This document shows positions 1 through 12,210 of a stretch of DNA of 12,210 bases, piece after piece. Position 1 is the stretch's first letter. Each line of letters begins with the position of its first letter. The notes under the pieces were generated by a model that ran no database searches, was not told the DNA's origin, and saw nothing but the letters and a program-made list of their open reading frames with translations. The DNA comes from Bacteroidia bacterium (lineage in GTDB: Bacteria; Bacteroidota; Bacteroidia; Bacteroidales; Azobacteroidaceae): contig BNWW01000054.1 of assembly GCA_025999115.1 (NCBI GenBank), positions 1 through 12,210 on the forward strand, written 5' to 3'. The translations under genes were made by a program, and so were the position numbers.

Positions 1-11
1 ATAAAAGTGGC

Positions 12-1669: not shown

Positions 1670-1972
1670 TTATTTTATATTTACCAGTGTTTTAAGCGAT
1701 TCTGAAAGCGGCAATTCAGCATTTTGTATTGTTGCAAGCAATTTTGCGCCTTTTTCGGTCAGGGCAAAATACATTTGCCGCTTGTCGTTGTTGCCAAGTG
1801 TGCGGATTATCAGATTTTTTTTCTCGGCAAGGCAGATTACTTTTGACGCATTGGAACAGGTCAAGCCCAACAGGGAAGCGATTTCGCCCGATGAACATCG
1901 TCCCGATTTTTGCAGGGAACAAATCAACATTCCTTCGTTCAGACATATACCGTATTGCTGTTGGAAAACAGT
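1670..1972 (-). pseudogene. N-terminally truncated MarR-like winged-helix protein
   Basis: The frame is open from 1972 and encodes the winged-helix core of a second regulator: QQQYGICLNEGM, then SSGEIASLLGLTCSNASKVI (helix-turn-helix), the wing NNDKRQMYFALTEKG, and a C-terminal helix ending LVNIK. This small family in Bacteroidales normally has another 20-40 residues before the QQQYG segment. Here those codons are missing because the sequence joins directly to the truncated flavoprotein gene in another frame. The first in-frame ATG (1930) falls inside the domain, giving an 86-aa product without the first helix. I infer loss of function by the same deletion that truncated the neighbour. Confidence 0.7.
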
Positions 1973-2931
1973 TTATTGCCTGAAATCAAGTTGCCGGCAA
2001 CAATTCGCGCCTGTTTATTGGCTGGACCTGCCAGCGGAATCAGGGCGTTTTTGCCTGTAACCGGATTGAAAACCTCGACGGCATCGCCCAAAGCGTAGAT
2101 ATTTTTGTCCGAAGTTTGTAGAAATTTATCCACCAAAATTCCACCCAAACCGCCTATTTTCAATCCCGCTTCTTTTGCTAATTTCACTTCGGGACGAACA
2201 CCGATTGAAAGTATAACCATATCTGCGTCAATGCTTTCTCCACTGTCCAACAAAACTTTTATTCTGTTTTCAACAGGTTCAAAAGCTGTTACGCCAACGT
2301 TGAGTTTCAATTTTATGCCTTTTTCGCTCAAATGATGATGCACAATCGCTGCCATCGGAAAATCAAGCGGCGCCATCACTTGCGGGGCTTTTTCCACTAC
2401 AATGGTCTCTATTTCTAATTTTTTTAGATTTTCGACCATTTCCAAACCAATAAATCCACCGCCTGCAACTACTGCTTTTTGCGGTTTATTTTTGAGTATA
2501 AAATTTTTGATTTTATCCGTATCAGCCACATTTCGCAACGACATAATTCTTTCATTGTCAATATTTTTTAATGACGGACGAACAGGCTCTGCACCGGTTG
2601 AAATGACCAATTTGTCGTAACTTTCCGTATATTCTTCATTGGTCAGGCCATTTCTGACCAAAACCGTTTTAGCCGAAACATGGATTTTCAATACCTCCGA
2701 ATGTATCCGAATGTCTATGTTGTAGCGAGCCTTAAAACTTTCAGGCGTTTGCAAAAGCAACTCATCCCGCTCAACAATCACGCCGCCAATGTAGTAGGGC
2801 AAACCGCAATTGGCGTAGGAAATATGCGCGCCCCGTTCAAAAAGTACAATTTCCGCCTTTTCGTCAAGCCGCCGCAAGCGAGCCGCCGTTGTTGCGCCGC
2901 CCGCAACTCCTCCAATGATAACCGTTTTCAT
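1939..2931 (-). pseudogene. CoA-disulfide-reductase-like flavoprotein, 3'-truncated
   Basis: The protein begins with an FAD-binding Rossmann motif (IIGGVAGGATTAARLRRLD, residues 5-23). It then carries the SYANCGLPY motif with the redox Cys42 that defines CoA-disulfide reductases and related NADH oxidases/persulfide reductases. An NADH-binding motif (VVAGGGFIGLEM, about 154-165) and the second FAD motif (ALGDAVEVF, about 281-289) follow. Family members go on for at least 120 residues of dimerisation domain, and often add rhodanese and TusA-like domains. Here similarity ends near NLISGNKL, and nine unrelated residues lead to a stop in the neighbouring MarR-like remnant. The missing dimerisation domain normally completes the active site, so the 330-aa product is probably inactive. 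It begins 1 bp after the rhodanese gene and would share its promoter. Confidence 0.8.
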
Positions 2932-2932
2932 A

Positions 2933-3292
2933 CTATTTAAGATTTGAATTTAAACTTTGCCAGGCGCCGCCATTATGAACACTTTTCAGTCCTTTGCCGG
3001 CAAGAATTGATTTTGCCTGCGCCGAGCGCATTCCGCTTGCACAGACAACGATAATATGGTTATACTTCCGCAACTTTTCAGTTTCACCCGAAATTCTGTC
3101 AAGCGGAATATTGACGGAATTTTCAATATGTCCGCCACGAAATTCCTCTTTGCTACGAACGTCAACAATCAACGTGTTACTGTCTGAATTTATTATTTCT
3201 ACCATTTTTTTCTGATTTTTATTTGTTATTAATTTTTTGATTAATAAAAATACAACCATCGCTGCTAAGATAATTATTAAAGTCTGATTCAT
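2933..3292 (-). CDS. Membrane-anchored rhodanese-domain protein
   Basis: This 119-aa protein has one N-terminal membrane segment (about residues 4-18, LIIILAAMVVFLLI) followed by a single rhodanese domain. The domain shows LIVDVRSKEEFRGGHI (about 41-56), N61-IP, and the active-site loop CASGMRS with catalytic Cys84 and Arg89. Single-domain rhodaneses carry sulfane sulfur as a persulfide on this cysteine. Position 88 is Met, giving CxxGMRS, a normal variant. The gene is immediately upstream of the CoA-disulfide-reductase-like gene, a partnership common in Bacteroidota for persulfide handling, but the partner is truncated here. Transcription probably starts at the TATCTTTG element at 3318-3325, preceded by two palindromic sites. 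There is no Shine-Dalgarno sequence; the ATG at 3292 places the membrane segment at the very N-terminus. Confidence 0.88.
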   Translation of the reverse strand: MNQTLIIILAAMVVFLLIKKLITNKNQKKMVEIINSDSNTLIVDVRSKEEFRGGHIENSVNIPLDRISGETEKLRKYNHIIVVCASGMRSAQAKSILAGKGLKSVHNGGAWQSLNSNLK

Positions 3293-3317
3293 AATTATTT
3301 TTTATTAAAAATTTCTG

Positions 3318-3325
3318 CAAAGATA
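3318..3325 (-). promoter_or_regulatory. Promoter -7 element of the rhodanese operon
   Basis: TATCTTTG on the minus strand matches TAnnTTTG and lies 26 bp upstream of the rhodanese ATG. The -33 region is not canonical, which fits an activator-dependent promoter using the palindromes just upstream. Confidence 0.65.
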
Positions 3326-3330
3326 ACACT

Positions 3331-3364
3331 TATTTTCCAATAAAATATATTTCCAATGGAAATA
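3331..3364. promoter_or_regulatory. Two abutting 17-bp palindromic operator candidates
   Basis: TATTTCCA-A-TGGAAATA (3348-3364) is a perfect 17-bp palindrome. Directly beside it TATTTTCCAATAAAATA (3331-3347) is a second, imperfect 17-bp palindrome that shares the TATTT(T)CCAAT half. The perfect site is centred about 44 bp upstream of the start point expected from the TATCTTTG element, a typical position for an activator. The regulator is unknown; it could be a dimeric winged-helix or CRP-type protein. Confidence 0.55.
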
Positions 3365-3404
3365 ATTAAAAATATTTTTAGAGTGAACGGCGAGTGTTAA
3401 AGAA

Positions 3405-3575
3405 TTATATTGCTAAACTGTTTTCATTCAGCAGAAAATCGAAAATATTCGTCACTATAATACCATCATCATTCTGATATGTCGGCGTTAAACTGCCTGT
3501 AATTACAATTTTCTGAAAACTGTCGGTGATATGCAATAACGAATTAAATTACTGTTCAATCTTTTCTTGCGTGGG
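3405..3575 (-). pseudogene. C-terminal remnant of a DUF4143-type ATPase
   Basis: One minus-strand frame reads PTQEKIEQ, a TAA stop, then FNSLLHITDSFQKIVITG and a tail DGIIVTNIFDFLLNENSLAI before the final stop. This matches the usual end of ATPase/DUF4143 proteins: a restriction-nuclease-like fold ending in '(T)xExIEREFxxLLxIxDxxxKxVI' and then a short 'GI...xLxxFLL' strand. The internal TAA probably replaces one codon of the EREF motif. Upstream the same frame has another stop and quickly loses similarity. Nothing of the ATPase domain remains nearby. It cannot be the 3' end of the stub at 416-505 without a large rearrangement, though both belong to the same broad family. Confidence 0.55.
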
Positions 3576-3610
3576 CAACGCCTATGACAGGATTTTTTTA
3601 TCGGAATTTA

Positions 3611-3640
3611 TTGCTGACTAAAAAAATAGTTGTATCTTTG
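3611..3640 (+). promoter_or_regulatory. Strong Bacteroidota promoter
   Basis: TTG at 3611-3613 is followed after exactly 19 nt by TATCTTTG (3633-3640), matching the Bacteroidota -33/-7 consensus (TTTG-N19-21-TAnnTTTG) almost perfectly. The expected start is near 3647. No substantial ORF follows, but a structured region with a terminator does. Confidence 0.75.
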
Positions 3641-3646
3641 CAACGC

Positions 3647-3750
3647 AAAATGTTTTGGTAATCGTTTTTGCCAAAATGTTAAAAAAACACTTTGTTTGGG
3701 TGCGTTCTATGGTTTTTTACTTTACGCGCCGGTTCAAAAGTGTTTTTTTG
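3647..3750 (+). ncRNA. Candidate small RNA, about 100 nt
   Basis: The region has a defined promoter upstream and a strong intrinsic terminator at its end. Near the 5' end TTTTGG (3653-3658) can pair with CCAAAA (3671-3676). A long second stem follows: AAAAAAACACTTT (3681-3693) pairs with AAAGTGTTTTTTT (3737-3749), and inside it GGTGCGT pairs with ACGCGCC with one wobble. The final T run doubles as the U-tail. This gives a compact two-hairpin transcript of roughly 100 nt with no good ORF. I do not recognise an Rfam family. A trans-acting sRNA or a 6S-like RNA are possibilities, and neither is shown by the sequence. Confidence 0.5.
3681..3749 (+). terminator. Intrinsic terminator of the small RNA candidate
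   Basis: A 13-bp A/T-rich outer stem with a GC-rich inner stem (GGTGCGT/ACGCGCC) ends in a run of seven T. A-tract before, stem, then U-tract is the pattern of a Rho-independent terminator that could work on both strands; on the minus strand it would also serve leftward transcription. Confidence 0.6.
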
Positions 3751-3751
3751 T

Positions 3752-3949
3752 TTATATTGCTTCTATTTTTGTTACCGAATATTGAATGTGTCGCCCATTG
3801 TTTTTAATCCCCAGCACAAGTTTTACGGTAAAATTCATATATGATTTTTCGGTATCAACGAAATTATAGTACAATACAGCCACATTAACATAGCCTAATT
3901 TTCGTTGATTTCCTGTTGGTTTTGCTTCGGAATAAATAACAATTGGGGC
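3752..3949 (-). pseudogene. C-terminal fragment of an unidentified protein
   Basis: An open minus-strand frame runs from inside the terminator-like hairpin and encodes APIVIYSEAKPTGNQRKLGY, then VNVAVLYYNFVDTEKSYMNF, TVKLVLGIKNNG and finally YSVTKIEAI before the stop. Composition and alternating strands look like genuine protein, possibly a beta-rich C-terminal domain of a mobile-element or toxin-type protein, but I do not recognise it. No start codon, promoter or 5' end is present, because the frame opens only a few codons upstream of the hairpin. It overlaps nothing on this strand. Confidence 0.4.
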
Positions 3950-4230
3950 GGAAAACCCAGGGCAAACGCATCTTAATTTGTGTTAAAAAAAGCCCGTAAG
4001 GGCTTGAATATGAATAACCCCCAATGAAGCGAAGCGATTGGGGGCAAGACGATACCCCTCCATCCCTGAACTCCGTAGGTGTTCAACCCTTTCAGGGTTG
4101 CCGGAGAAGGGCGGTATTGTAACCCCCAGTCGCCCTATCGGGCTTCACTGGGGGTTATTCATATTTAAGACCTCCGGTCTTTAACACAAATTAAGATGCG
4201 TTTGCCCTGGCGGAAAACCTCCCGCCCCAA
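3943..4230. terminator. Terminator-like hairpin split by an insertion
   Basis: TTGGGGCGG (3943-3951) is the exact reverse complement of CCGCCCCAA (4222-4230), which is followed by ATTTTT. If the 251-bp element and one copy of the 11-bp repeat are removed, the two arms come together as a 9-bp GC-rich stem with an 8-nt loop (AAAACCTC), a standard intrinsic terminator. It would have ended the gene whose last codons lie at 4247-4351 and/or rightward transcription. Confidence 0.55.
3958..4208. mobile_element. MITE-like palindromic element, 251 bp, with 11-bp flanking repeats
   Basis: The element has long terminal inverted repeats: 3957-3987 and 4180-4210 are 31-bp perfect reverse complements (starting CCAGGGCAAACGC). 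Nested inside, GAATATGAATAACCCCCA pairs with TGGGGGTTATTCATATTT with one end mismatch. Several secondary hairpins follow: AAGCCC-GTAA-GGGCTT, CCCCCAAT...ATTGGGGG, CAACCCT-TTC-AGGGTTG, CCCCCAGT...ACTGGGGG and AAGACC-TCC-GGTCTT. It has no ORF. The identical 11-mer GGCGGAAAACC abuts both ends (3947-3957 and 4209-4219), as expected of a target-site duplication. I infer a non-autonomous element mobilised in trans; the transposase family is unknown. Confidence 0.7.
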
Positions 4231-4246
4231 ATTTTTAATAATCAAA

Positions 4247-4351
4247 TCATTCCAACACAGGACGAACAGAAAGTCCGTAATTACGGAATTGGTTATCTGC
4301 TTGCAGGAATTGTTCAAAAACCAAAATTTTATCGCTGTTTTTTCTTTGTCT
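4247..4351 (-). pseudogene. C-terminal gene tail ending in SVRPVLE
   Basis: A frame of 34 codons (..NSDKILVFEQFLQADNQ, then FRNYGLSVRPVLE) ends at 4247 just before the terminator-like hairpin. The ending 'YGxSVRPV' is typical of the last residues of FISUMP / formylglycine-generating-enzyme-like domains found in many Bacteroidota lipoproteins. The match is short and the preceding residues are not diagnostic. There is a stop upstream in frame, so only the tail is left. An overlapping longer frame (to 4413) was not preferred because it has no recognisable content. Confidence 0.3.
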
Positions 4352-4357
4352 TTATTA

Positions 4358-4393
4358 AAACCTGTTAAGACTTTATGAAAACTTAACAGGTTT
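4358..4393. repeat. Palindromic repeat, copy 1 (terminator-like)
   Basis: AAACCTGTTAAG (4358-4369) and CTTAACAGGTTT (4382-4393) are perfect 12-bp inverted arms with a 12-nt loop. It lies 20 bp downstream of the T9SS tail at 4414 and could terminate that gene. The same arms occur again at 5469-5501, on the other side of the broken ATPase. Confidence 0.65.
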
Positions 4394-4413
4394 ATGAAAT
4401 TGATTAACACCAC

Positions 4414-4497
4414 TTATTTTTTCAAAATCTTGCTGACCGCTACTCCACTACCGCTATAAACCTTAAGCAAATACACACAATGTGGCAAAACCGGACA
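4414..4497 (-). pseudogene. Tail of a type IX secretion sorting domain
   Basis: The frame reads CPVLPHCVYLLKVYSGSGVA and then VSKILKK before the stop. This is the characteristic end of the T9SS type A C-terminal sorting domain, in which 'LpxGiYlvkv' and a final 'g...KiikK' strand are conserved; the usual Gly before Tyr is replaced here by Cys-Val. Only about 27 codons of the domain remain, and directly upstream is the stop codon of the DUF4143 remnant. T9SS is restricted to Bacteroidota and relatives, so this supports the host assignment. The cargo protein it belonged to has been lost. Confidence 0.6.
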
Positions 4498-4498
4498 T

Positions 4499-5325
4499 TT
4501 ACACAACATTTCCGATTGCATACAGCGGATAAACCTTGATTTTATCATACACCGCAAAATTTTCGAGCGAAGTTCTGATGCCGTATTCCGATTCTTTTTC
4601 GTTCAAAAACACCCACATACTTTGCATTTTGCCGCTACTGCCCGATTTTACTTCGATTGGCACAACCGTTTGCCCCTGCTGAACAACAAAATCAATTTGT
4701 GCATCTGCATTTTTCTTCTCGCGCACCCAACAGTAAAGTTCGTCATCAGTGTAGCACGAGGCGGCTTTTTTGAGTTCGCAGGCAACAAAAATTTCGGCAA
4801 TCGCGCCTTTGTTGATTACGTCAAAGTCGTTTGAAAGCAAAATGTGCGAAACGTCAAGATTCAAAATTCGCTGACAAAGTCCCGTGTCAAAGGGAATTAT
4901 ACGCCGAATTTTCGGATTTATATTGGCACCGAGCGGAACGCCGTTTGCCGAACTGTGCGTAATCTGATAATTTTTCGTGTACACCTTCCGAAAGCGGTTT
5001 TTCGGGCGTTGCCTCGTCAATGAGTTTTGCCCACATATCGCGTCCCTGTGCGAGCAAAAACTGCAATTATTGGCGTATCAACTACTTCCGACAGTTTTTC
5101 GCAAATGTTTTTAGGCGAATGTCCTGCCTGAAACAAATCTTTAATTTTCTGTCCTGTATCTTCAAAATTCAGTTCCACATAATATTTGAACGTTTTGCCC
5201 AGGTTGCGCACCGCAGAAGTTTTGCCAATTTGCCGCGCACCGCGCAACATCAGCGGTTTGTGCCGTCTGTCGTTTTTCCATTCAAGCAATGCGTAGTCAA
5301 TTTTTCTTTTGAAATAGTCCATCAT
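4499..5325 (-). pseudogene. DUF4143 AAA ATPase broken by two internal deletions
   Basis: Three colinear pieces of one gene are seen in different frames. Piece A (5325-5068) is MMDYFKRKIDYALLEW through the Walker A loop GARQIGKTSA to EVVDTPI. Piece B (about 5057-4968) reads DMWAKLIDEATPEKPLSEGV-HEKL, which belongs to the middle of such proteins. Piece C (4969-4499) begins YQITHSSANGVPLGANINP and contains the C-terminal DUF4143 domain (LDTG-like FDTGLCQRIL, INKGAIAEIFVACEL, IDFVVQQG, VPIEVKSG) to its natural end. Walker B, the sensor region and the ATPase lid are missing between A and B, and more is missing between B and C. Family members are about 380-450 aa. These proteins are poorly characterised P-loop ATPases with a nuclease-like tail. 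The ATG at 5325 (or 5322) fits the family start; the frame is open to 5466 through repeats. Confidence 0.75.
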
Positions 5326-5329
5326 TTTC

Positions 5330-5410
5330 TTTTCCGTAAAAATAGGAGGCAAAGTTACGACTTTTTCCGTAAAAATACTACTCAAACTTTTATGATTTTC
5401 CGTAAAAATA
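5330..5410 (-). repeat. Three copies of a 15-mer at exact 33-bp spacing
   Basis: On the minus strand TATTTTTACGGAAAA occurs at 5396-5410, 5363-5377 and 5330-5344, each 33 bp apart, just upstream of the ATPase start codon. A degenerate fourth copy may lie near 5426-5440. Each 15-mer is preceded by a TTTG-containing segment, and the one before the last copy contains TAACTTTG (5350-5357), a good -7 promoter element. The repeats translate as IFTEK/IFTEN if the longer frame is read, but they look like a duplicated promoter/leader rather than protein. Confidence 0.65.
5350..5357 (-). promoter_or_regulatory. Promoter -7 element of the broken ATPase
   Basis: TAACTTTG on the minus strand fits TAnnTTTG and lies 25 bp upstream of the ATG at 5325, within the 33-bp repeat array. 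It supports a start at 5325/5322 rather than at 5466. Confidence 0.5.
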
Positions 5411-5468
5411 CGGGGCAAATCTTTTTTTTCGTGTAAACCAATAGTCAAAGAACGCTGTTTTGACACTT

Positions 5469-5501
5469 AAACCTGTTAAGTCTTTAAGACTTAACAGGTT
5501 T
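5469..5501. terminator. Palindromic repeat, copy 2, ending the operon
   Basis: AAACCTGTTAAGTCTT (5469-5484) and AAGACTTAACAGGTTT (5486-5501) are perfect 16-bp arms around one central base. The inner 12 bp are the same as in the copy at 4358-4393. It covers the last codons of the small membrane protein gene and would form a very stable hairpin at the 3' end of the long minus-strand operon. Confidence 0.65.
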
Positions 5502-5666
5502 TCTGTTCCTGTCATAAAAGCATTTGTAGCCAACGATTATCCATAATACAAGCAATATATTCACAGCAATATCAAGCATCTTATTCATTGCGATAAAAGA
5601 AAAAAGCCCGATAGCATATAAAAATCCATTGTCGTCCGCATCGGGACAATATTTAATTTGTATCAT
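5484..5666 (-). CDS. Small membrane protein, function unknown
   Basis: This 60-aa ORF begins with an ATG that overlaps the PHP stop codon (ATGA), preceded by AAGGAG at 7 nt spacing, so translational coupling is likely. It encodes a polar N-terminus (MIQIKYCPDADDNG) and two hydrophobic stretches (about residues 15-28, FLYAIGLFSFIAM, and 33-48, IAVNILLVLWIIVGY). The C-terminus is basic (RNRKPVKS). The last codons are read from the palindromic repeat, so the natural C-terminus may have been altered by repeat insertion. No family is recognised. Its position as the last gene of the operon suggests an accessory role at the membrane, but this is inference. Confidence 0.55.
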   Translation of the reverse strand: MIQIKYCPDADDNGFLYAIGLFSFIAMNKMLDIAVNILLVLWIIVGYKCFYDRNRKPVKS

Positions 5667-6532
5667 TTTCTACTCCTTTCTAAATTATGTTTATGCAAAT
5701 CCTCTAATATTGAGTACGGTACACATGAATTACCTTCTATGCATGTTCCTAAATCAATTTCAGGTATGTTTGTTCCGTGAAAGTCGCTTCCACCAGATTT
5801 ACATAAATGATAGGTATTAGCAAGGTCAACCATACATCGACTCGTATAGGGTGTATTATTAGAATGATATGTTTCTATGCCATCAAGACCTAAATCTTTC
5901 ATTAAAACAATCATTTTTTCAAGTGTTGAAATACTGATCCGACACAATATCGGATGTGCAAGTATGGCAAGTCCGCCAGCCTGATGAATAAGACCGATAG
6001 ATTCAGCAATCGGTTGCTTAAAAGTAGATTCAATATAAGCGGCTCCGCCAACTCCGAGTAGTTCTTTCGCTTCACTAATACCCTTTGAAACAAGATATTG
6101 TGATATATAGAATTTTGTGGGCGTTTGCATTTTTGTATATGACAATAATTCTTCGTAACTTACATCAAAACCTAAGTCAATAAGTCTTTTGATTCTCTCT
6201 TGGTTTCTTATTATTTGTGCATTGCGGCGCATTTCTAAAATACGGACAAGATTACTATCGCGAAAATCAACAAATAATCCAAGCAAATGGACGCTTATCG
6301 GTGGTTTATTGCCATTAAAAATATCAAATTCAGTTGATATTTCAATCCCGGAAATCACTTCAATATTTAGTTGATTACCTGCTATAATGGCTTCTTCTAC
6401 TCCCGATATGCTGTCGTGGTCAGTTATCGCAATCGCTGAAAGCCCTTTTTGGTTGGCATGCTGCACTATTTCAGTGGGCGTAAAAGAACCATCTGAATAT
6501 GTTGTATGTATATGTAAATCAATTGTTTTCAT
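5663..6532 (-). CDS. PHP-domain phosphoesterase (nucleotide phosphatase-like)
   Basis: This 289-aa protein is full length for the PHP group that includes 3',5'-nucleoside bisphosphate phosphatase / RNase AM (TrpH/YciV type). The metal ligands are all visible: DLHIHTTYSDG (His7, His9, Asp14), ITDHDS (Asp38, His39), GIEIS (Glu64), His82, LAHP (His193), TYHS (His223) and GGSDFHG (Asp250, His252). Family members use a trinuclear metal centre to hydrolyse phosphomonoesters of nucleotides such as pAp, or 5' ends of short RNAs. In this operon it could remove a phosphate from a nucleotide-derived intermediate or product. It starts 14 bp after the kinase stop with a moderate ribosome-binding site (AGGA), and its stop overlaps the next start. 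The substrate is unknown. Confidence 0.85.
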   Translation of the reverse strand: MKTIDLHIHTTYSDGSFTPTEIVQHANQKGLSAIAITDHDSISGVEEAIIAGNQLNIEVISGIEISTEFDIFNGNKPPISVHLLGLFVDFRDSNLVRILEMRRNAQIIRNQERIKRLIDLGFDVSYEELLSYTKMQTPTKFYISQYLVSKGISEAKELLGVGGAAYIESTFKQPIAESIGLIHQAGGLAILAHPILCRISISTLEKMIVLMKDLGLDGIETYHSNNTPYTSRCMVDLANTYHLCKSGGSDFHGTNIPEIDLGTCIEGNSCVPYSILEDLHKHNLERSRK

Positions 6533-6546
6533 TGTTTTCCTGTTCT

Positions 6547-7194
6547 CTATTTTTGCAATAATTCATTTATTGCCTTAATGCTTTCTCGCAAAACATATTC
6601 AGAATCGTTATTTGCATCAACTGTCACAATTTTGTATTCTTCTTCTCGCATAATTTTTGAATAAAGTTTCTTGAGGTTTATAAGCGCATCAATATTATCA
6701 TGTCTGCTGATTGGCTTTCCATTGGACTCGGCACGCTTTACAATTCTGCTCATTGCTTCTTCAACAGTAATATCAAGATATATTCCCAAGTCCGGAACCG
6801 GCAAACACGACATCATTTTGCTCATAACAAAATAATCTTCCGGAGCGCCTGATTCTAAAAAAACTCTGCTACAAATTGAATATCTATCAAGAACAACATT
6901 AACATTAGAATTCAACAAAGGCTCAATAAAATTAAGAACGTTGTAAACAATATCATTTATATGTGCAATACCCGAAAATGCTTTTGAGAAAGAATCCTTT
7001 AAGTAATGCATACTGTTTTTAGCATCCCTTATTTCTTTAACAAACTTAGCTTTTTTAATGCACGGATAAAATACAATGGTTCCATTATCAGGGTAATATT
7101 CTTTTAACTTACTCATTAAAGTGGTTTTACCTGAGCCATCTATACCAAAGACTACAATAAGTTTGCCTTTCTTCTTATCCAAATCAATATTCAT
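6547..7194 (-). CDS. Thymidylate-kinase-like P-loop nucleotide kinase
   Basis: The 215-aa protein has the size and motif order of thymidylate kinases: the P-loop GIDGSGKTT (17-25), the substrate-site motif LDRYS (102-106, the DR(H/Y) of Tmk), the strand PDLGIYLDIT (134-143), and a lid-like region KRAESNGKPISR (153-164). Tmk-family enzymes phosphorylate dTMP or related nucleoside monophosphates with ATP. The sequence between the P-loop and the DRY motif diverges from housekeeping Tmk, so another NMP or an unusual monophosphate is possible. The ATG lies inside the end of the pentapeptide gene (11-bp overlap), with AAGGAGG placed ideally in front, so translation is probably coupled. In this context it would phosphorylate a modified nucleotide or pyrimidine made by upstream genes, which is inference. 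Confidence 0.8.
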   Translation of the reverse strand: MNIDLDKKKGKLIVVFGIDGSGKTTLMSKLKEYYPDNGTIVFYPCIKKAKFVKEIRDAKNSMHYLKDSFSKAFSGIAHINDIVYNVLNFIEPLLNSNVNVVLDRYSICSRVFLESGAPEDYFVMSKMMSCLPVPDLGIYLDITVEEAMSRIVKRAESNGKPISRHDNIDALINLKKLYSKIMREEEYKIVTVDANNDSEYVLRESIKAINELLQK

Positions 7195-8074
7195 TAAGTA
7201 TCCTCCTTAATTTTCTCTTTTTAAGTTTATATATAACACGCGCTCGGTGCCACCGATTCCTGATTTTCTTCGTCTTCTTCATTCCGTGTTCTTCGGGCTT
7301 GAAACCTTCGGGAAAGCGTGTTTCTTTATTATATATAGCTCCTTCCAAATTGGCTCCTCCCAAATCTGCTCTCAAATCCGCTCCTTCCAAATGCGCTTCA
7401 AAGAACATGGCTCCTTTCAAATTCGCATCTTTGAAGCCGGCACCTTCCAAATTCGCTTCTTGGAAGTTGGCACCTTCCAATTTCGCTCCAAAGAACTTGG
7501 CGTTTTTCAAATACGCATTATGTAAGTGAGAGTTAGGCAAATAACATTTTGGCAAATACGCCTCCTCCAACTCTTTAAACAATCCTTCATTTTCTCTAAA
7601 CAGCAAATTCAAAAGCATCTGAATTTCATTTGAAGGCCCATCTTTATATTTTTCCTCACACTCATCCTTAGCCGTTTTGCTGCAAACATGTCCACAAAGA
7701 ATCTTAAAAACCTTTTCTTTATAGTCTTCCGGATATTCTTTAGCCAGAAAGCGAAGATTATAAATGCCACCTAAGCGGGTAGATTCACTGTTACTTTCAA
7801 GCAATTTTACAGCTTGGGCAAAACTGTTGATAAAACGGTTCTCTCTTGTTTGCTTTTGGGCTTGCCAAATTGTGCAGCACCCACCAACAACGCCAAATAA
7901 AGCAATCCAGACGGTGTAAAATTCCGTCCAATTCTGCCATGTCATTTTTTCAGGAGGCAAGTTTAATTTCTCTTTAAAATAAGGCAGGGGTATATCCAGA
8001 ATTGGAAGAAAAAAGGTGACTACTATCCCTATCCCTATCACCCATATCAAATGTTTTTTGAATACGTTTTTCAT
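7184..8074 (-). CDS. Membrane-anchored pentapeptide-repeat protein
   Basis: The 296-aa protein has two N-terminal membrane segments (about 8-28 and 52-70). A conserved cytosolic block follows (QTRENRFINSFAQAVKLLES, then RLGGIYNLRFLAKEYP, about 74-116) that is common to this pentapeptide-protein group. A C-terminal right-handed beta helix built of A(N/D)LxG repeats spans about 172-247. One repeat is a residue short (GADLR-ADLGG), interrupting the five-residue phase. The tail (about 262-296) is very basic. Pentapeptide proteins may mimic DNA or act as scaffolds; some (Qnr, McbG) protect topoisomerases against drugs, but those lack membrane segments. The gene sits between the ThiC-like and kinase genes in the same direction. 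It has no Shine-Dalgarno sequence, unlike its neighbours, so it may have joined the operon separately. Function here is unknown. Confidence 0.85.
   Translation of the reverse strand: MKNVFKKHLIWVIGIGIVVTFFLPILDIPLPYFKEKLNLPPEKMTWQNWTEFYTVWIALFGVVGGCCTIWQAQKQTRENRFINSFAQAVKLLESNSESTRLGGIYNLRFLAKEYPEDYKEKVFKILCGHVCSKTAKDECEEKYKDGPSNEIQMLLNLLFRENEGLFKELEEAYLPKCYLPNSHLHNAYLKNAKFFGAKLEGANFQEANLEGAGFKDANLKGAMFFEAHLEGADLRADLGGANLEGAIYNKETRFPEGFKPEEHGMKKTKKIRNRWHRARVIYKLKKRKLRRILNEY
7202..7210 (-). promoter_or_regulatory. Strong Shine-Dalgarno before the kinase
   Basis: TTAAGGAGG lies 7 nt before the ATG at 7194, within the last codons of the pentapeptide gene. It fixes the kinase start and is unusually strong for Bacteroidota. 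Confidence 0.75.
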
Positions 8075-8113
8075 CGCAGTATGTAATTTAATTTTTATAT
8101 TGTTTTCTCCGTT

Positions 8114-9322
8114 TTACTCAAAGTTATTATCTGCTGTCTTCTGTACTAATGGGCAATGGCATGAACATCTCGAACACGCTTTCTTGCTGTTTCCATCAGG
8201 AGCTTTGTATTCGAACAGGCCGCCATCAACAACGCAAGTTTCAAAGTTTGCCCGTTTATCAGATATTTCTTTATCTATCTCGCTTTCGCCCACAAACCTT
8301 TCAAGGTTGATAATATGTTCGACTGTCCTTGCTGCTTTCAAAGCTTCTACTATTATTTCAGTAGTTGGAATACCACCTGTATGTTCTGCACGAGATACAG
8401 TATTGATTGCGCAAGTATTGCCAAACTTTGCCATAAACGTCGCTCCGATAGCCGCAGCAACGTGGTCAAAGTCAATAACTGAATCTGTGGGGATAGGTCC
8501 CAACGGCATTAGTGGCGTTCCATTTTCTGCAACCAACTTACCGTATTCAGGAATTTTGCTAAGTGGCATATGCCCTACGCCTTCCATTACTACTTGCACA
8601 CCATTCTTTTTGCACTTGTCAATGTATTTTTTTTGCAACTTAGTTTCTGCGACACTAACTTCGTCAAGGGCATCCTCAATCGTTGCTGGACGGAATGTCG
8701 AACCAATGTTTATCGTCAAACTATACTTCGTTGCAAGTTTTAAAATATCATCGAAACATTCGTCAACGATATTCGTTTCACGCCTGTTTATTTCTACATC
8801 TTTCAAGACAAGTCCTCCGCCCCAACTTGAACAAGGTATCCTACGGCTTTTCTTAGCGAGTTCATACAATTTTTTCATAGCACAAGCGTGAATTGTGATG
8901 AAATTTACACCGTTCGCCCCCATTTCCTCAATTCTTTCAAGAAGAGCTGTTCTTGAAATATTTCCTTTAGAATCAGCTACACTATAAACGGGAACAGTTC
9001 CTGTTGGCTTATTGGTGATTTCAGAGAGATACTTCCAAACTGGCTTATCTAAGTGGAGTTCACGAGTATGGTCCATGAAATAATCGGGGGCATACGAGAG
9101 TTTTGATATTGTTTCAATCTTTCGAAGCTCTTCGGCTAAGTCGCTTGCTTTTGATATACCTATGTTCGTGTTTACCTTCAAAAGAAACTTATCGCCTAAC
9201 ACAACAGGGTGAGTAGGGTGACTGATATAAGCAATGTCAATGCAATTTCCTGAAAACATTGACTCTAAAGTTTCATTTGATATGTAGCCTTTGCTCACTT
9301 CTTTAGTCAAATTAAAATTCAT
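8114..9322 (-). CDS. Divergent ThiC-family radical SAM lyase
   Basis: The 402-aa protein follows the ThiC/BzaF layout: SKGYIS (ThiC RxGxxT), KVNTNIG (49-55), GTVPVYSVA, EEMGANGVNFITIHA, INIGSTFRP (ThiC LSLGDGLRPG), MEGVGHMP (257-264), PLGPIPTDSVIDFDHVAAAI, SRAEHTGGIP and a Cys-rich C-terminus. ThiC converts aminoimidazole ribotide to the thiamine pyrimidine; BzaF makes 5-hydroxybenzimidazole from it. Here the final motif is CSRCSCHCPL (Cys383, 386, 388, 390) instead of CX2CX4C. The ThiC SRGG motif reads SSWGGG, and DLSTGG is replaced by DHTRELHLDKPVW. The putative metal-binding histidines of GxGH and AEH remain. This points to a paralogue with another product. The ATG at 9322 is chosen because AAAGGAGG stands just before it; the frame is open to 9391. 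The nucleotidyltransferase stop is 2 bp upstream. No other thiamine genes are present. Confidence 0.85.
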   Translation of the reverse strand: MNFNLTKEVSKGYISNETLESMFSGNCIDIAYISHPTHPVVLGDKFLLKVNTNIGISKASDLAEELRKIETISKLSYAPDYFMDHTRELHLDKPVWKYLSEITNKPTGTVPVYSVADSKGNISRTALLERIEEMGANGVNFITIHACAMKKLYELAKKSRRIPCSSWGGGLVLKDVEINRRETNIVDECFDDILKLATKYSLTINIGSTFRPATIEDALDEVSVAETKLQKKYIDKCKKNGVQVVMEGVGHMPLSKIPEYGKLVAENGTPLMPLGPIPTDSVIDFDHVAAAIGATFMAKFGNTCAINTVSRAEHTGGIPTTEIIVEALKAARTVEHIINLERFVGESEIDKEISDKRANFETCVVDGGLFEYKAPDGNSKKACSRCSCHCPLVQKTADNNFE

Positions 9323-9324
9323 GG

Positions 9325-10098
9325 CTATATCCTCCTTTGATTCAACAACTCTTCTGTTCTTGCGAGGTCTTCCGCATAATCTATATCCCAAATATCTTCT
9401 ATAAGCATTGCAAGGACATTATGTTGTTCGATAAATTTTGCAATGAATCCTGCGTGACTGTCCTTTCCGATTGCCAAGCGTTTTTTAATGAATATGAATG
9501 GTTCGACATTATAGACATAAATCATTCCGCCTGCCTTGCCACATTCTTCACTATCTTCTTCAGTAATATCATCAGATTTGCTAACTCCACCCTTGTACCA
9601 TTTGATTACTCTTCCGTCCTTAACGAAAATTGAACGATCCCAGGGTTGCTTAACTTCGTCAATCGGTATTGACGGATTGTCAACCGTACAGATAAACGCA
9701 TCAGCGTGTTTACCATCAATTCCTTTCAGCATATCAAGGAAAAAGTCTGCTTGTATGACCGCATCGCCATAAGCTACCACAAACGGCGTTTGAACGTGTC
9801 TTTCTGCACACAACAAAGTTTTAATCTTGCCTTCTCCTTCAAATCTCACAAAGTTCAAAGCTTTCTTATATGCCGCGTTCTGTTCGCTAAGTGCAAGCAT
9901 ATCTTTTGTATGTTCGCTGTAAACGATAATAATAATGTCAATACCTGCCGCTAACATTGCATCAATGCCATAGCAAACGAGCGGTTTTCCTGCTACCATC
10001 GTCATAGGCTTCGAACAAGTCTGCCTTGTTCCGTCACGAAGGCGTTTGCCTTCGCCCGCAGCGAGAATCACACCGTGCTTTATATCTTTTATGTTCAC
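9325..10098 (-). CDS. Sugar-phosphate-type nucleotidyltransferase
   Basis: This 257-aa protein has the Rossmann-type nucleotidyltransferase fold: HGVILAAGEGKRLRDGT (9-24) with the NTP-binding LAAGxGxRL, the conserved lysine in SKPM (Lys30), the metal-binding GD at 111-112 (VVAYGDAV), and a late IWDIDYAEDL (236-245) typical of cytidylyl- and guanylyltransferases. Such enzymes join an NMP from CTP, UTP, GTP or dTTP to a phosphorylated small molecule, giving an activated NDP-type product. The acceptor cannot be predicted. Residue 24 replaces the usual Pro-Leu-T segment with DGT. The start appears to be GTG at 10098, since an in-frame stop lies three codons upstream and no ATG precedes the motif. 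Its last codons (QRRI) double as the ribosome-binding site of the ThiC-like gene, so the two are probably translated together. Confidence 0.85.
   Translation of the reverse strand: MNIKDIKHGVILAAGEGKRLRDGTRQTCSKPMTMVAGKPLVCYGIDAMLAAGIDIIIIVYSEHTKDMLALSEQNAAYKKALNFVRFEGEGKIKTLLCAERHVQTPFVVAYGDAVIQADFFLDMLKGIDGKHADAFICTVDNPSIPIDEVKQPWDRSIFVKDGRVIKWYKGGVSKSDDITEEDSEECGKAGGMIYVYNVEPFIFIKKRLAIGKDSHAGFIAKFIEQHNVLAMLIEDIWDIDYAEDLARTEELLNQRRI
9331..9338 (-). promoter_or_regulatory. Strong Shine-Dalgarno before the ThiC-like gene
   Basis: AAAGGAGG, with GATATAGCC... leading to the ATG at 9322, decides the start of the ThiC-like gene. It is embedded in the final Gln-Arg-Arg codons of the nucleotidyltransferase. 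Confidence 0.75.
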
Positions 10099-10123
10099 TT
10101 GATTTTAATCACTTAAAGAATAA

Positions 10124-10801
10124 TTACTTAAAAACTTCATTTATTACTTTGTTTGCATTCTCATAATCAGGTTCGTATATATGAGAACTTATTGCGTTTA
10201 CATATAACTTTCCAACTTTAGCACCTATCGCTGTAGCAATTTGTTGCTGATGTTTACTTATTGCTATAAAGTTTCCTGGAGCCTTCCACCATGCGCATTG
10301 ACTTCGAAAGATTGCGGTAACATCAAGCACATTGTTTCTTAGTTTAAAGTCAATCACTGTAATACATGGTGGTTTTTTACCACGCCAATTCCGTAACGGA
10401 AACACAATGGTTGCCGATTTAGAAGTCGGATCGTCTTTTAGTTTTTGCACAAGCCAATCAAACTGGTTGACACCGTTTAAGTTGAAAATATACTGTCCGT
10501 AACCGCGGTCAATCTTATAGCCATTAGTTCCTTCTGTCCAATAATAACCTTCTAAGAACTTTATTATTGGAGTATCTTGGTATTCCTTTAACAAGTATTC
10601 GTATTTACGTATAATCGGATCGTTGTAATCCACAGAGTCAATCTCAATATATACGTTTCTAACTTCTCTGAGACCTGAAGATTCATTCGCTTTGAACTCT
10701 GCATCTTTATCCTTTATATCCTCGCCATGAGTCATAACCAGTTGTAATGCTCGAACCCACGCTTCGCCAGCGGTCTTAGCACTAATTACATTGATTGCCA
10801 T
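10124..10801 (-). CDS. Thymidylate-synthase-family enzyme (pyrimidine C5-modifying?)
   Basis: From the ATG at 10801 the protein is 225 aa, slightly short for ThyA (264 aa in E. coli). It has the family's catalytic region: KKPPCITVIDFKL with nucleophile Cys146, FRSQC (Arg166, Ser167), APGNF (Asn177) and SSHIYEPDYEN (His207, Tyr209). These numbers coincide with the E. coli positions. Asp169, which contacts folate in ThyA, is Cys here, and the segment after it (AWWKAPGNF) replaces FLGVPFN. The family includes dUMP methylases and dCMP/CMP hydroxymethylases (MilA of mildiomycin, the bacimethrin enzyme); Asn177 is typical of uracil recognition. A modified nucleotide substrate is likely. The frame is open to a TTG at 10816. 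No strong ribosome-binding site is seen. Confidence 0.8.
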   Translation of the reverse strand: MAINVISAKTAGEAWVRALQLVMTHGEDIKDKDAEFKANESSGLREVRNVYIEIDSVDYNDPIIRKYEYLLKEYQDTPIIKFLEGYYWTEGTNGYKIDRGYGQYIFNLNGVNQFDWLVQKLKDDPTSKSATIVFPLRNWRGKKPPCITVIDFKLRNNVLDVTAIFRSQCAWWKAPGNFIAISKHQQQIATAIGAKVGKLYVNAISSHIYEPDYENANKVINEVFK

Positions 10802-10851
10802 AGTTTTATTATCCAAAAATTATTGTTTTTATATAAGCAAATTAGATTATA

Positions 10852-11883
10852 CTATTCTATAACCTCAGTATTTCTTTCAGGTGGAATACAATGATAACAA
10901 AGAGCCTTCCTAAAGTTAATATCGAAATTCTCAAAGTCAAGCAACGAGAATTGCGGTGTATTTGGAAATAGACAACTTTGCGTTTTGCCCTCATTTGAAA
11001 CTTTGAAATATCTTGTTTTGCAAAGTTCACACTCACGAAGTCGGCAATGTGAAATAAAGAAGTAAATGCCTTTATTTCTCTCGCCACCCGGGAACGTTCC
11101 GTAATATCGATCTTTTGTCCGTTGATAATTCATAGTAAGACCAAGCTCTTTAATAATGTGTTTCGCCATAATTATATACTCACCCGTTGGTTCATCAGCA
11201 ATAACATCATCAATCTTCTCAAGAATTCTCAAGAAAATTTTGTTATCACGACACCAATAAGCAAGTTTTGTTATATTATCAAGGTCACCATTATAGACAT
11301 TAGTAATCGAAACATTACAGCCGGTTTCATTTATCCTCAACACACTATTAAGAACTTTTGCTGATGGAATACCTGTCGGCGAGTCCTTTGAAACCTTTCT
11401 GTCATAGAAATCTAAACCCACAGCTACTGAATCAAGCCAACCGTGAGATATAAGGTTAAGTATTGTTTCAATCTCTATTATGTTTGAGTTTATCTCGAAG
11501 CTTATGTTAGGAAACCTTGTCTTTATTTCACGACATATATCTGTTATCTCCGGATGAATAGTTGGCTCTCCACCAGTAAGGCGCACACTCCTCACACCGT
11601 AGTTCATAGAACGTTCGACGATACCTATTATTTGCTCACGAGATAGAGTATTGTCGGAAATGCAACCTTCTCTATGGCAGTATACACACGCCATATTGCA
11701 CTTCGATGTTATTGCAATACGCAAAGCCCCAGACAAAATATTAAGTTTGCCGTACTTAATTTTTGAAACATTGCAATCAAACCAATTGCTCCTATTTAAT
11801 CCTTTGTCCATTTCATTTTTAAATAGTTGATAATTATTGTATTGAAAAATCAGATAATAAAGAATTGCTGGAAAGATAAGCAA
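10852..11883 (-). CDS. MoaA-like radical SAM enzyme, 5' end uncertain
   Basis: The protein carries the radical SAM cluster motif CNMACVYC (Cys62, 66, 69 from 11883) in an archaeal-MoaA-like context (LRIAITSKC...HREG), the SAM motif TGGEP (103-107), and a TIM-barrel core. C-terminally a second cysteine set follows: CELCKTRYFKVSNEGKTQSC (Cys285, 288, 304), plus Cys329/332. This parallels the auxiliary [4Fe-4S] site of MoaA (CX2CX13C), but with 15 residues in the last gap. MoaA's C-terminal Gly-Gly is absent; the end is NTEVIE. MoaA makes 3',8-cyclo-GTP; a related nucleotide rearrangement is plausible. The frame begins at TTG 11883 without a ribosome-binding site. An ATG at 11917 with an excellent GGAGG is in another frame and would connect by a one-base shift in the T5 run at 11845-11849. 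Alternatively translation starts at ATG 11811. Confidence 0.82.
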   Translation of the reverse strand: MLIFPAILYYLIFQYNNYQLFKNEMDKGLNRSNWFDCNVSKIKYGKLNILSGALRIAITSKCNMACVYCHREGCISDNTLSREQIIGIVERSMNYGVRSVRLTGGEPTIHPEITDICREIKTRFPNISFEINSNIIEIETILNLISHGWLDSVAVGLDFYDRKVSKDSPTGIPSAKVLNSVLRINETGCNVSITNVYNGDLDNITKLAYWCRDNKIFLRILEKIDDVIADEPTGEYIIMAKHIIKELGLTMNYQRTKDRYYGTFPGGERNKGIYFFISHCRLRECELCKTRYFKVSNEGKTQSCLFPNTPQFSLLDFENFDINFRKALCYHCIPPERNTEVIE

Positions 11884-11913
11884 AGGGACAAAATCCCGGA
11901 ATCATTGGCGCAT

Positions 11914-12057
11914 TCATAATAATTCCTCCTTTCTGAAAAAGATTTCCCCTACTCCTGTCGTTTTTCGAGAATTGACGCGGTTTTTTGAAATGGGTTCTCG
12001 CTCCATTGCACTGCCATAATCAGCTGCATTTCTGTTTGTTTTACTACTGAGATACAT
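11914..12057 (-). CDS. Possible 47-aa leader ORF
   Basis: An ATG at 12057 opens a 47-codon hydrophilic frame (MYLSSKTNRNAADYGSAMER and on to IFFRKEELL) whose TGA overlaps the ATG at 11917, as in translationally coupled genes. It has no recognisable domain, no Shine-Dalgarno sequence and no membrane segment. The overlap with the strong ribosome-binding site of the next start is the only positive sign; it could be a leader peptide or chance. Confidence 0.3.
   Translation of the reverse strand: MYLSSKTNRNAADYGSAMEREPISKNRVNSRKTTGVGEIFFRKEELL
11923..11932 (-). promoter_or_regulatory. Strong Shine-Dalgarno in front of ATG 11917
   Basis: AAAGGAGGAA stands 7 nt before an ATG at 11917. That ATG opens a frame starting MNAPMIPGFCPF that stops at 11834, unless one T of the run at 11845-11849 is removed, in which case it continues into the radical SAM protein. 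The site is the best ribosome-binding site near the gene and argues that its real start is 11917. Confidence 0.7.
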
Positions 12058-12077
12058 AAACTTTGTAATTTAAATTT

Positions 12078-12110
12078 GGGCATAAAAATAGCGGACTTAC
12101 ATTATCCGCC
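12078..12110 (-). terminator. Short hairpin with T-run (terminator or attenuator)
   Basis: On the minus strand GCGGA (12109-12105) pairs with TCCGC (12095-12091), closed by a G-U pair, with a 9-nt loop, and is followed by TATTTTTATG. It is a modest intrinsic terminator located between the right edge and the operon. Its 3' arm can alternatively pair with an upstream segment (see the structured RNA), so it may be conditional. Confidence 0.5.
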
Positions 12111-12210
12111 ATTGAGGTTGTGAGAATTACCTGTACTACAAATAAGTAAATCCGCATTGCTGCGGCATTCAACTTATCCTTGTAGTACTCGAAACTTCTC
12201 ACATTTCAAT
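12111..12210 (-). ncRNA. Long structured hairpin upstream of the operon
   Basis: The whole 100 nt folds as one irregular hairpin. Paired blocks are ATTGA/TCAAT (12111-12115 with 12206-12210), TGTGAGAA/TTCTCACA (12119-12126 with 12196-12203), GTACTACAA/TTGTAGTAC (12133-12141 with 12180-12188), ATAAGT/ACTTAT (12142-12147 with 12172-12177) and CCGCA/TGCGG (12152-12156 with 12161-12165). Read on the minus strand, the apical loop is GCAA, a GNRA tetraloop, which supports RNA function on the operon's strand. Unpaired bulges separate the stems. The outermost stem ends exactly at the window edge, so the structure may continue. It could be a riboswitch-like leader, a small RNA, or a DNA-level palindrome of a mobile element; no known class is recognised. 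Confidence 0.5.

What the first reader, a model, noticed from the sequence alone, without database searches (positions are those of the whole stretch)
5484..11917. Eight-gene operon pairing MoaA-like, TS-like, ThiC-like, nucleotidyltransferase, kinase and PHP enzymes
Seen: eight collinear genes with small gaps or overlaps, six of them with clear motifs of nucleotide or radical SAM enzymes. Known: MoaA and ThiC both rearrange purine-derived ribonucleotides by radical chemistry; TS-family enzymes alkylate pyrimidine C5; Tmk-like kinases, nucleotidyltransferases and PHP enzymes handle phosphate transfer. Inference: the operon makes an activated, modified nucleotide or pyrimidine compound, perhaps a secondary metabolite, antivitamin (compare bacimethrin and mildiomycin, which use a TS-like CMP hydroxymethylase), cofactor or defence nucleotide. 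I know of no described cluster with this set.
Basis: partly seen in the sequence, partly recalled or inferred. Interest (0 to 1): 0.85.

Follow-up and report, generated by a model that had tools for sequence, protein, structure and literature searches.

The report
Mobile operon with non-thiamine ThiC relative
A block of seven genes that looks inserted into a bacterial chromosome encodes unusual relatives of vitamin- and nucleotide-making enzymes; one belongs to a scattered ThiC-like family that has lost two residues needed to make the thiamin pyrimidine and so probably makes something else.

Summary
The operon is real but has seven genes (5663-11811, minus strand). The 'eighth' (5484-5666) is the tail of a host gene that is whole in a near relative (98% identical flank, no operon), so the operon lies on DNA new to this spot; its far end is unseen. 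The gene set was not found elsewhere: none of the other six genes has a relative at 17 ThiC-like loci, and the TS-like protein has only distant kin (34% identity or less).

The ThiC-like gene is the main result. It belongs to a scattered clade, 100/100 apart from ThiC plus Bza, that keeps most AIR- and metal-site residues, but 0 of 137 rows have Asp383 and 0 of 137 have Cys474. Published mutants of ThiC make no HMP-P without the Asp (D383A) or the Cys (C474S, which makes an aldehyde). Elsewhere the clade sits by an Fe-alcohol dehydrogenase, a toroid protein, an unknown 421-aa protein, or inside a restriction operon; thiamin genes were found at 0 of 17 of its loci and 12 of 17 canonical ones. 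Best reading: an accessory nucleotide-chemistry pathway, possibly for defence. The product is unknown.

The parts
10852..11811 (-). MoaA-like radical SAM enzyme, 319 aa (longest ORF starts at 11883)
   Evidence: Pfam PF04055 2.9e-19; moaA_archaeal 101 bits against cut-off 325; own family A2; CX3CX2C and a C-terminal C-x4-C-x2-C-x15-C
10124..10801 (-). Thymidylate-synthase-like protein, 225 aa, no close relative
   Evidence: TIGR03283 90 bits against cut-off 174.55; only itself found at E<=0.001 in the protein database; Cys146, Arg166, Ser167, His207, Tyr209 as in four comparators, Asn177, and Cys169 where the four have Asp
9325..10098 (-). Nucleotidyltransferase of the sugar/alcohol-phosphate type, 257 aa
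   Evidence: PF00483 1.8e-11, NTP_transf_3 8.9e-11; solved chains matched at 8e-6 to 7e-4 are mostly sugar-, inositol- and choline-phosphate nucleotidyltransferases
8114..9322 (-). ThiC-like radical SAM protein, 402 aa, of the clade without Asp383 and Cys474
   Evidence: PF01964 5.3e-61; 207 bits against ThiC cut-off 410; trees; residue tally
7184..8074 (-). Pentapeptide-repeat protein with two hydrophobic N-terminal segments, 296 aa
   Evidence: PF00805 4.9e-17; hydropathy peaks at residues 10 and 52
6547..7194 (-). Thymidylate-kinase-like P-loop kinase, 215 aa
   Evidence: PF02223 1.3e-22; TIGR00041 83.2 bits against cut-off 83.25
5663..6532 (-). PHP-domain phosphoesterase, 289 aa
   Evidence: PF02811 7.6e-16; 152 bits against RNase RNM cut-off 375 and 151 against 3',5'-nucleoside bisphosphate phosphatase cut-off 400
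5484..5666 (-). Relic: 3' end of a host gene broken at the junction, not part of the operon
   Evidence: G001 has the whole 129-aa gene
5613..5614 (.). Left junction of the new DNA with the host chromosome
   Evidence: 98% identity to G001 over 1961-5613, sequences part after it
11982..12207 (.). Repeats that also occur in G001, beyond the operon
   Evidence: Matches of 79-92% to G001 contig C8

Best explanation
A horizontally acquired accessory operon encodes a pathway that builds an abnormal, nucleotide-derived phosphorylated small molecule. The ThiC-like enzyme binds AIR or a close ribonucleotide and starts ThiC-type radical chemistry at C5' (inferred from kept site residues). Without Asp383 and Cys474 it should not finish HMP-P; it should release a diverted product, most simply an aldehyde, as published ThiC mutants do. 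The TS-like enzyme forms a Cys adduct with a uracil nucleotide and substitutes C5, perhaps with a changed one-carbon donor. The MoaA-like enzyme works on a second, purine-type substrate. The kinase, nucleotidyltransferase and PHP enzyme phosphorylate, activate and trim the product. The membrane pentapeptide protein is the effector or the immunity part. I think the most likely use is conflict (defence against phage, or competition) rather than core metabolism. Shown: gene content, a junction with a broken host gene, separate clade, residue losses, lack of thiamin neighbours. Inferred: insertion as a unit, substrates, order of steps, use.
For: Junction in a host gene that is whole in G001, which lacks the operon. 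ThiC-like clade 100/100 apart from ThiC plus Bza. Residues: Asp383 column T103 S28 A6 of 137, Cys474 column N135 H2 of 137, against D17 N1 and C18 of 18 ThiC, D5 and C5 of 5 Bza; N228, M257, Y286, H322, R386, E422, H426, H490 kept in 129 to 137 of 137 and in the window. ThiC mutants: D383A gives no HMP-P; C474S gives an aldehyde and no HMP-P (PMC11117688, sections 8 and 12 read). An Fe-ADH, which could reduce an aldehyde, at 8 of 17 loci. ThiG, ThiH, ThiF or ThiE matches near 0 of 17 ThiC-like and 12 of 17 canonical loci. Canonical ThiC over cut-off also in 8 of the 17 genomes. Rare: 1 of 295 and 4 of 392 genomes. Defence genes in a comparison within the same eight genomes: 56 PADLOC families for 72 ORFs near the clade, 2 for 91 ORFs near canonical ThiC.
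Against: The window has no Fe-ADH and its PADLOC matches are weak (44 bits at best). The seven-gene set is known from one contig. The defence signal was tied to three loci (L001, L013, L014), and PADLOC models are redundant. AtThiC D383N kept part of its activity, so a Ser or Thr there need not stop the chemistry. Loss of Asp383, which touches the imidazole, may mean another substrate altogether. TS-like, nucleotidyltransferase and PHP steps are assigned by family only.
Confidence: 0.45

Rival explanations
1. A secondary-metabolite or antivitamin cluster (compare bacimethrin, mildiomycin): the operon makes and activates a modified pyrimidine for export as a toxin, the pentapeptide protein being self-protection.
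For: The TS-like protein aligns with CMP hydroxymethylase MilA at 2.6e-5, though thymidylate synthase 7ta9 scores better at 2.1e-6, and has Lys at the MilA Lys133 column; ThiC kin, kinase and nucleotidyltransferase in one operon. Some ThiC-like loci look biosynthetic: L046 beside ketosynthase-III- and SDR-like genes by eye, L002 beside a LicD protein.
Against: Asn177 and Ser167 are the uracil and deoxyribose types. No transporter, methyltransferase or N-glycosidase family among the seven genes. ThiC-like lacks the two HMP-P residues.
Confidence: 0.25
2. Decoration of a surface glycan or lipid: the nucleotidyltransferase activates a phosphorylated alcohol made by the radical enzymes, as CDP-choline is for LicD.
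For: Nucleotidyltransferase nearest to sugar-, inositol- and choline-phosphate types; L002 has a LicD-epimerase protein (1.8e-39) upstream of ThiC-like.
Against: No glycosyltransferase or LicD family among the window genes scanned; LicD was seen at one locus, but the 17 loci were not all scanned for it.
Confidence: 0.12
3. A cobamide lower-ligand or molybdopterin-like cofactor pathway.
For: ThiC and MoaA kin; the nucleotidyltransferase scores weakly with CobY (34 bits against 250).
Against: BzaB score 138 bits against cut-off 700; Bza keeps Asp383 and Cys474 (5 of 5) and groups with ThiC; no further cofactor family among the genes scanned.
Confidence: 0.05
4. A chance or decaying assembly with no joint function.
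For: Gene set found once; host region rich in repeats and broken genes.
Against: Seven intact ORFs with gaps of 2-50 bases; nucleotide-site residues of the ThiC-like and TS-like proteins kept.
Confidence: 0.08

Closest known systems
ThiC, phosphomethylpyrimidine synthase (PF01964; TIGR00190; PRK13352)
   Same: Fold family, most AIR- and metal-site residues, three C-terminal cysteines
   Different: 207 bits against cut-off 410; Asp383 to Ser, Cys474 to Asn; separate clade; no thiamin genes found nearby
BzaB/BzaF hydroxybenzimidazole branch of ThiC
   Same: A non-thiamin use of the ThiC scaffold
   Different: The five BzaB-type proteins compared keep Asp383 and Cys474 and group with ThiC; the new clade does not. 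BzaF itself was not compared
MoaA, GTP 3',8-cyclase
   Same: Radical SAM CX3CX2C and a second set of cysteines at the C-terminus
   Different: 98-101 bits against cut-offs 231-325; C-x2-C-x15-C instead of x13 in the solved MoaA; no C-terminal Gly-Gly (that MoaA needs it is recalled)
MilA/BcmA CMP hydroxymethylases and thymidylate synthase (methanogen type TIGR03283)
   Same: Catalytic Cys, Arg166, His207, Tyr209; Lys at the Lys133 column
   Different: Uracil-type Asn177; Cys169 where comparators have Asp; ends soon after His-x-Tyr; no close relative
Prokaryotic viperins (pVip) with associated kinases
   Same: MoaA-related radical SAM plus a nucleotide kinase making an altered nucleotide (recalled)
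   Different: 39.6 bits to pVip, 36 against cut-off 180 in NCBIfam; more enzymes; no defence shown

Membership tests
ThiC (HMP-P synthase) | Score over the curated family cut-off | tested here: not met
   207 against 410, 179 against 460 bits
ThiC (HMP-P synthase) | Asp383 and Cys474 needed for HMP-P | tested here: not met
   Ser and Asn in the window; 0 of 137 clade rows have either; need shown in PMC11117688, where D383N kept part of the activity
ThiC (HMP-P synthase) | AIR- and metal-site residues | tested here: met
   N228, M257, Y286, H322, R386, E422, H426, H490 present in the window; the roles are recalled except for Asp383, Glu422 and Cys474
ThiC (HMP-P synthase) | Thiamin-gene neighbourhood | tested here: not met
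   ThiG/H/F/E queries from one species: 0 of 17 clade loci, 12 of 17 canonical
Bza (hydroxybenzimidazole synthase) | Score over TIGR04386 and grouping with Bza | tested here: not met
   138 against 700 bits; tree; compared with five hits of the BzaB model, four over and one just under its cut-off
MoaA | Score over curated cut-off | tested here: not met
   98-101 against 231-325 bits
MoaA | Radical SAM and C-terminal cluster cysteines | tested here: met
   Conserved in A2; spacing differs from MoaA
Thymidylate synthase / CMP hydroxymethylase | Nucleophile Cys and nucleotide-binding Arg, His, Tyr | tested here: met
   C146, R166, H207, Y209
Thymidylate synthase / CMP hydroxymethylase | Asp in the Arg-Ser-x-Asp motif | tested here: not met
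   Cys169; Asp in 4 of 4 comparators; its role in folate binding is recalled
CMP hydroxymethylase (MilA, BcmA) | Lys133, Ala176, Asp186 | tested here: not met
   Lys, Ser, Asn
Viperin | Score over viperin cut-off | tested here: not met
   36 against 180 bits
dTMP kinase | Score over TIGR00041 cut-off | tested here: inconclusive
   83.2 against 83.25
Anti-phage defence system | Protection from phage | not testable with these tools
   Only neighbourhood evidence

The most novel reading that the evidence does not exclude
The ThiC-like clade is a third branch of the ThiC superfamily that turns AIR, or another ribonucleotide, into a diverted radical product used in anti-phage immunity, working with exchangeable partners (Fe-ADH plus membrane-tailed toroid, the 421-aa protein, a restriction operon). 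The window is its most elaborate form: a MoaA-like enzyme, an orphan TS-like enzyme and activation enzymes make an immune nucleotide for a membrane pentapeptide effector.
Probability: 0.25. Interest if true: 0.9.

Novelty: new variant of a known kind. Interest (0 to 1): 0.64.

Why it matters
ThiC is described as the most complex enzyme-catalysed radical cascade known (abstract of PMC11117688). A natural clade that keeps most of its binding site but has given up two residues required for HMP-P would show where that cascade can be diverted, and gives enzymes on which the published mechanism can be tested directly. If the clade serves immunity, it would add a purine-pathway radical enzyme to the chemistry of bacterial defence, beside viperin. 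Several relatives are named 'phosphomethylpyrimidine synthase' by their sources; predictions of thiamin synthesis made from that label could be wrong, for example in G219, 98% complete, whose only ThiC-family match is of this clade.

Tried and rejected
Rejected: CX2CX3C as the mark of the new clade. Short canonical ThiC have the same spacing; what differs is GC-x-RC-x3-CP, an extra upstream Cys, and the two lost residues.

Rejected: the idea that the operon recurs on plasmids or phages. TS-like hits in 4 plasmid and 34 phage records are 34% identical or less in the rows listed; the neighbourhoods I opened (three plasmids, one phage) are not the operon. A ThiC-like query found one plasmid record at E<=1e-45, a normal thiamin operon; its ten phage-record hits were not classified.

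Led nowhere: first genome scan with the single ThiC-like protein (no relative); structure of the TS-like protein without an alignment (pLDDT 38.8); structure of the 421-aa partner (pLDDT 51.0); I ran no fold search, as both models are too poor. Rfam: no match. MoaA-like in 295 genomes of the order: none at E<=1e-30, without a positive control. Nucleotidyltransferase in viral contigs: none.

Not done: structure of the toroid partner; metagenome contigs around the nearest ThiC-like proteins (P0002, P0003, P0007), as no scan was allowed. Left out of trees and tallies: clipped or unclassified rows L026, L027, L030, L031, L032, and database hits beyond the 120 listed of 273.
Full report
What is there. 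Seven intact minus-strand genes run from 11811 to 5663: MoaA-like, TS-like, nucleotidyltransferase, ThiC-like, pentapeptide, kinase, PHP (starts of three genes taken from the database entries P0122, P0121 and P0001). Gaps are 2 to 50 bases, and the pentapeptide and kinase genes overlap by 11. The window appears to be a whole metagenome contig (longest contig 12210).

It lies on DNA new to this spot. The window's own genome is not held. The nearest held genome, G001, matches 1961-5613 at 98% and shows no DNA match to the operon and no ThiC-like protein. In G001 the gene at the junction is a whole 129-aa protein; the window keeps its last part as the 60-aa ORF that was counted as gene eight. Repeats at 11982-12207 occur in G001 contig C8, so both ends look like one lineage. 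The other half of the broken gene is not in the window, so a rearrangement, or less likely a misassembly, is not excluded.

How far each protein is from known families. Pfam cut-offs are passed, but against NCBIfam cut-offs the scores are: ThiC 207 of 410, BzaB 138 of 700, MoaA 98-101 of 231-325, TS 90 of 174.55, PHP about 152 of 375-400; the kinase reaches 83.2 of 83.25. A search of 5.8 billion proteins found 273 for the ThiC-like protein at E<=1e-5, itself included (120 listed), 53 for the MoaA-like one at 1e-10 besides itself, and none but itself for the TS-like one at 0.001 (68 candidates only, a search that needs shared 5-residue words). TS-like proteins in 34 phage and 4 plasmid records are distant matches, 34% identical or less in the rows listed.

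The ThiC-like clade. A scan of genome contigs gave 27 loci. Sixteen (L001-L016) are the clade, nine (L017-L025) group with canonical ThiC, two clipped ones (L026, L027) were not classified. Of representatives scored by NCBIfam, four of the clade reach 208-229 bits and three canonical ones 556-660 on their best ThiC model, cut-off 410. One more clade locus came from 295 genomes of the host's order (1 of 295, L046); in a second order 4 of 392 genomes had one, all already known. Members lie in Bacillota, Bacteroidota, Actinomycetota and Pseudomonadota and, by source names, cyanobacteria. Trees put the clade on one side of a 100/100 branch from canonical ThiC (51 rows) and from ThiC plus five Bza proteins (50 rows; I dropped six rows of the first set by hand). 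In the second tree one ThiC from a viral contig, L029, falls with Bza.

Lost catalytic residues. I aligned 137 clade rows (the window, the other 119 of the 120 listed database hits, and 17 loci; some overlap), 18 canonical ThiC and 5 Bza. At Asp383 the clade has Thr 103, Ser 28, Ala 6; ThiC Asp 17, Asn 1; Bza Asp 5. At Caulobacter Cys474 the clade has Asn 135, His 2; ThiC Cys 18; Bza Cys 5. Counting along the solved chain places Cys474 in LCYVTPKEH and, by the published pair Glu413/Glu422, Asp383 in GDGLRPG; both motifs align with the clade without gaps (INSVTREEH; GTTFRPA). Asn228, Met257, Tyr286, His322, Arg386, Glu422, His426 and His490 are kept in 129 to 137 of 137; the exceptions are eight rows at 228, six at 257, six at 286, two at 422 and one at 490. 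The window and ten others have Trp where ThiC mostly has an Arg before Gly-Gly. In PMC11117688 (passages, and sections 8 and 12 in full) Asp383 is bonded to AIR N3; D383A makes no HMP-P but a shunt product and formate, while D383N keeps part of the activity; C474S uses AIR, makes no HMP-P and no CO, and gives an aldehyde. So the clade should not make HMP-P. Whether AIR is still the substrate is open, since Asp383 contacts the base.

Neighbours of the clade. By tblastn at 1e-4: Fe-ADH at 8 of 17 loci (L001-L004, L007-L009, L046; in L003 only 22% identical, in L007 on the other strand), toroid protein at 7 (L001, L004, L005, L007, L008, L009, L046), the 421-aa protein at 7 (L006, L010-L013, L015, L016; in L010 on the other strand), none of these at L014 and none at 17 canonical loci. 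Some loci end early, so misses may be contig ends. The toroid protein is squalene-cyclase-like in L005 (1.2e-20), weak in L008 (0.005) and unmatched in L001 and L007. Of five toroid sequences tested for hydropathy, four have two segments towards the C-terminus, L046 one. The window's pentapeptide protein and the 285-aa protein of L014 have hydrophobic N-termini; three 421-aa proteins tested have none at that threshold. L008 and L009 add a kinase of the Tmk type. An aldehyde product would explain the Fe-ADH; the window has none.

Not thiamin genes. With ThiG, ThiH, ThiF and ThiE of one species as queries, matches lie at 0 of 17 clade loci and 12 of 17 canonical loci (9 of 9 from the scan, 3 of 8 from the same genomes as clade members). 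All 17 genomes of the clade have a ThiC-family match; in 8 a second, canonical ThiC is over the cut-off, in 9 it is not seen; completeness is known to me only for G219.

Defence neighbourhood. I first scanned ten neighbours picked by eye: a type III restriction enzyme directly upstream in L014, type I methyltransferases in L013, SIR2 in L001, weaker matches in L006 and L007; three proteins had none. To control for choice I then took closed, mostly non-overlapping ORFs of 150 aa or more in the eight clade loci whose genomes also hold canonical ThiC (72) and around that canonical ThiC in the same genomes (91) (the ThiC genes themselves removed, three of them by hand; stretches differ in length, 7.6 to 21 kb). 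At E<=1e-30, 56 PADLOC families were hit in the first set and 2 (WYL, mad3; one protein each) in the second. Families are redundant and one search does not say which protein was hit; the honest statement is at least three of eight loci against one or two of eight. Recombinase- and integrase-like ORFs near several loci were seen by eye only.

L014 is the most telling: SNF2 helicase, N6/N4 methyltransferase, type III restriction enzyme, ThiC-like, a protein that looks by eye like a nucleotidyltransferase (Pfam gave only a sub-threshold HECT match), a protein with one hydrophobic segment and a methyltransferase, all in one direction. It is also the longest branch of the tree, so its place is unsure.

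TS-like. Against four plasmid and phage TS proteins it keeps Cys146, Arg166, Ser167, His207, Tyr209 but has Cys169 where the four have Asp, and ends soon after His-x-Tyr. By the rules of PMC5175136 (passages) Asn177 is the uracil type, Ser167 the deoxyribose type, and the Lys aligned with MilA Lys133 the ribose type; so a uracil nucleotide is likely and its sugar uncertain. The catalytic Glu could not be placed.

MoaA-like. Its family keeps the radical SAM motif and four C-terminal cysteines (most rows). One viral contig (L075) carries a member at 39% next to a protein with radical SAM and B12-binding domains (2.5e-16 and 7.6e-12) and a protein with a hydrophobic N-terminus by eye. That is a second case of such an enzyme as mobile cargo, but without the other window genes.

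Print. I searched open-licence papers for ThiC kin, ThiC with defence terms, and the gene combination. I saw listings only, and of two searches just the top 20 of 623 and 10 of 1,175; none of the listed titles and abstract starts describes this clade or operon. In PMC10853773 and PMC7159879 (passages) the word ThiC does not occur in this sense.

Judgement. The seven genes, the broken host gene and the residue losses are firm. That the operon makes a nucleotide-derived molecule is likely. Defence is a lead with modest support. The gene set as a unit rests on one contig.

Noticed in passing
L014:210-13386 (Paraglaciecola arctica): A restriction-type operon (SNF2 helicase, N6/N4 methyltransferase, type III restriction enzyme) is followed after 30 bases by a ThiC-like gene and three further small genes.
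   Followed up: partly
L075:8182-13540 (viral contig): Cargo with a MoaA-like protein, a B12-binding radical SAM protein and two unknown proteins.
   Followed up: partly
L048:8028-10589 and L049:8776-10678: Plasmids of Leptospira and Agrobacterium carry a TS-like gene with an alpha-glutamyl/putrescinyl thymine pyrophosphorylase clade 3 gene beside an ImmA/IrrE gene: a likely base- or nucleotide-modifying module.
   Followed up: partly
L047:6774-9705: E. coli IncHI1B plasmid with metallophosphoesterase, a protein weakly like TS (0.0069), a MazG-like protein and a TS gene in a row.
   Followed up: no
L070-L074: All five BzaB-type proteins compared have Asn where ThiC has His490.
   Followed up: no
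L006, L010, L011, L012, L013, L015, L016: A 421-aa protein of unknown fold is the partner of one set of ThiC-like genes; single members had no Pfam, NCBIfam, PHROG or PADLOC match of note.
   Followed up: partly
window 3957-4210: A repeat with 31-base perfect inverted ends and many partial copies in G001; looks like a small non-coding mobile element.
   Followed up: no
window 1-128 and 5469-5501: Dispersed repeats with many copies in G001; the second is a 33-base near-palindrome.
   Followed up: no
window 4499-5466: An AAA_14/DUF4143 ATPase gene split into two frames; also in pieces in G001.
   Followed up: no
L002:6534-11161: Epimerase and LicD genes, as of a surface-polymer cluster, directly before a ThiC-like and Fe-ADH pair.
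   Followed up: no
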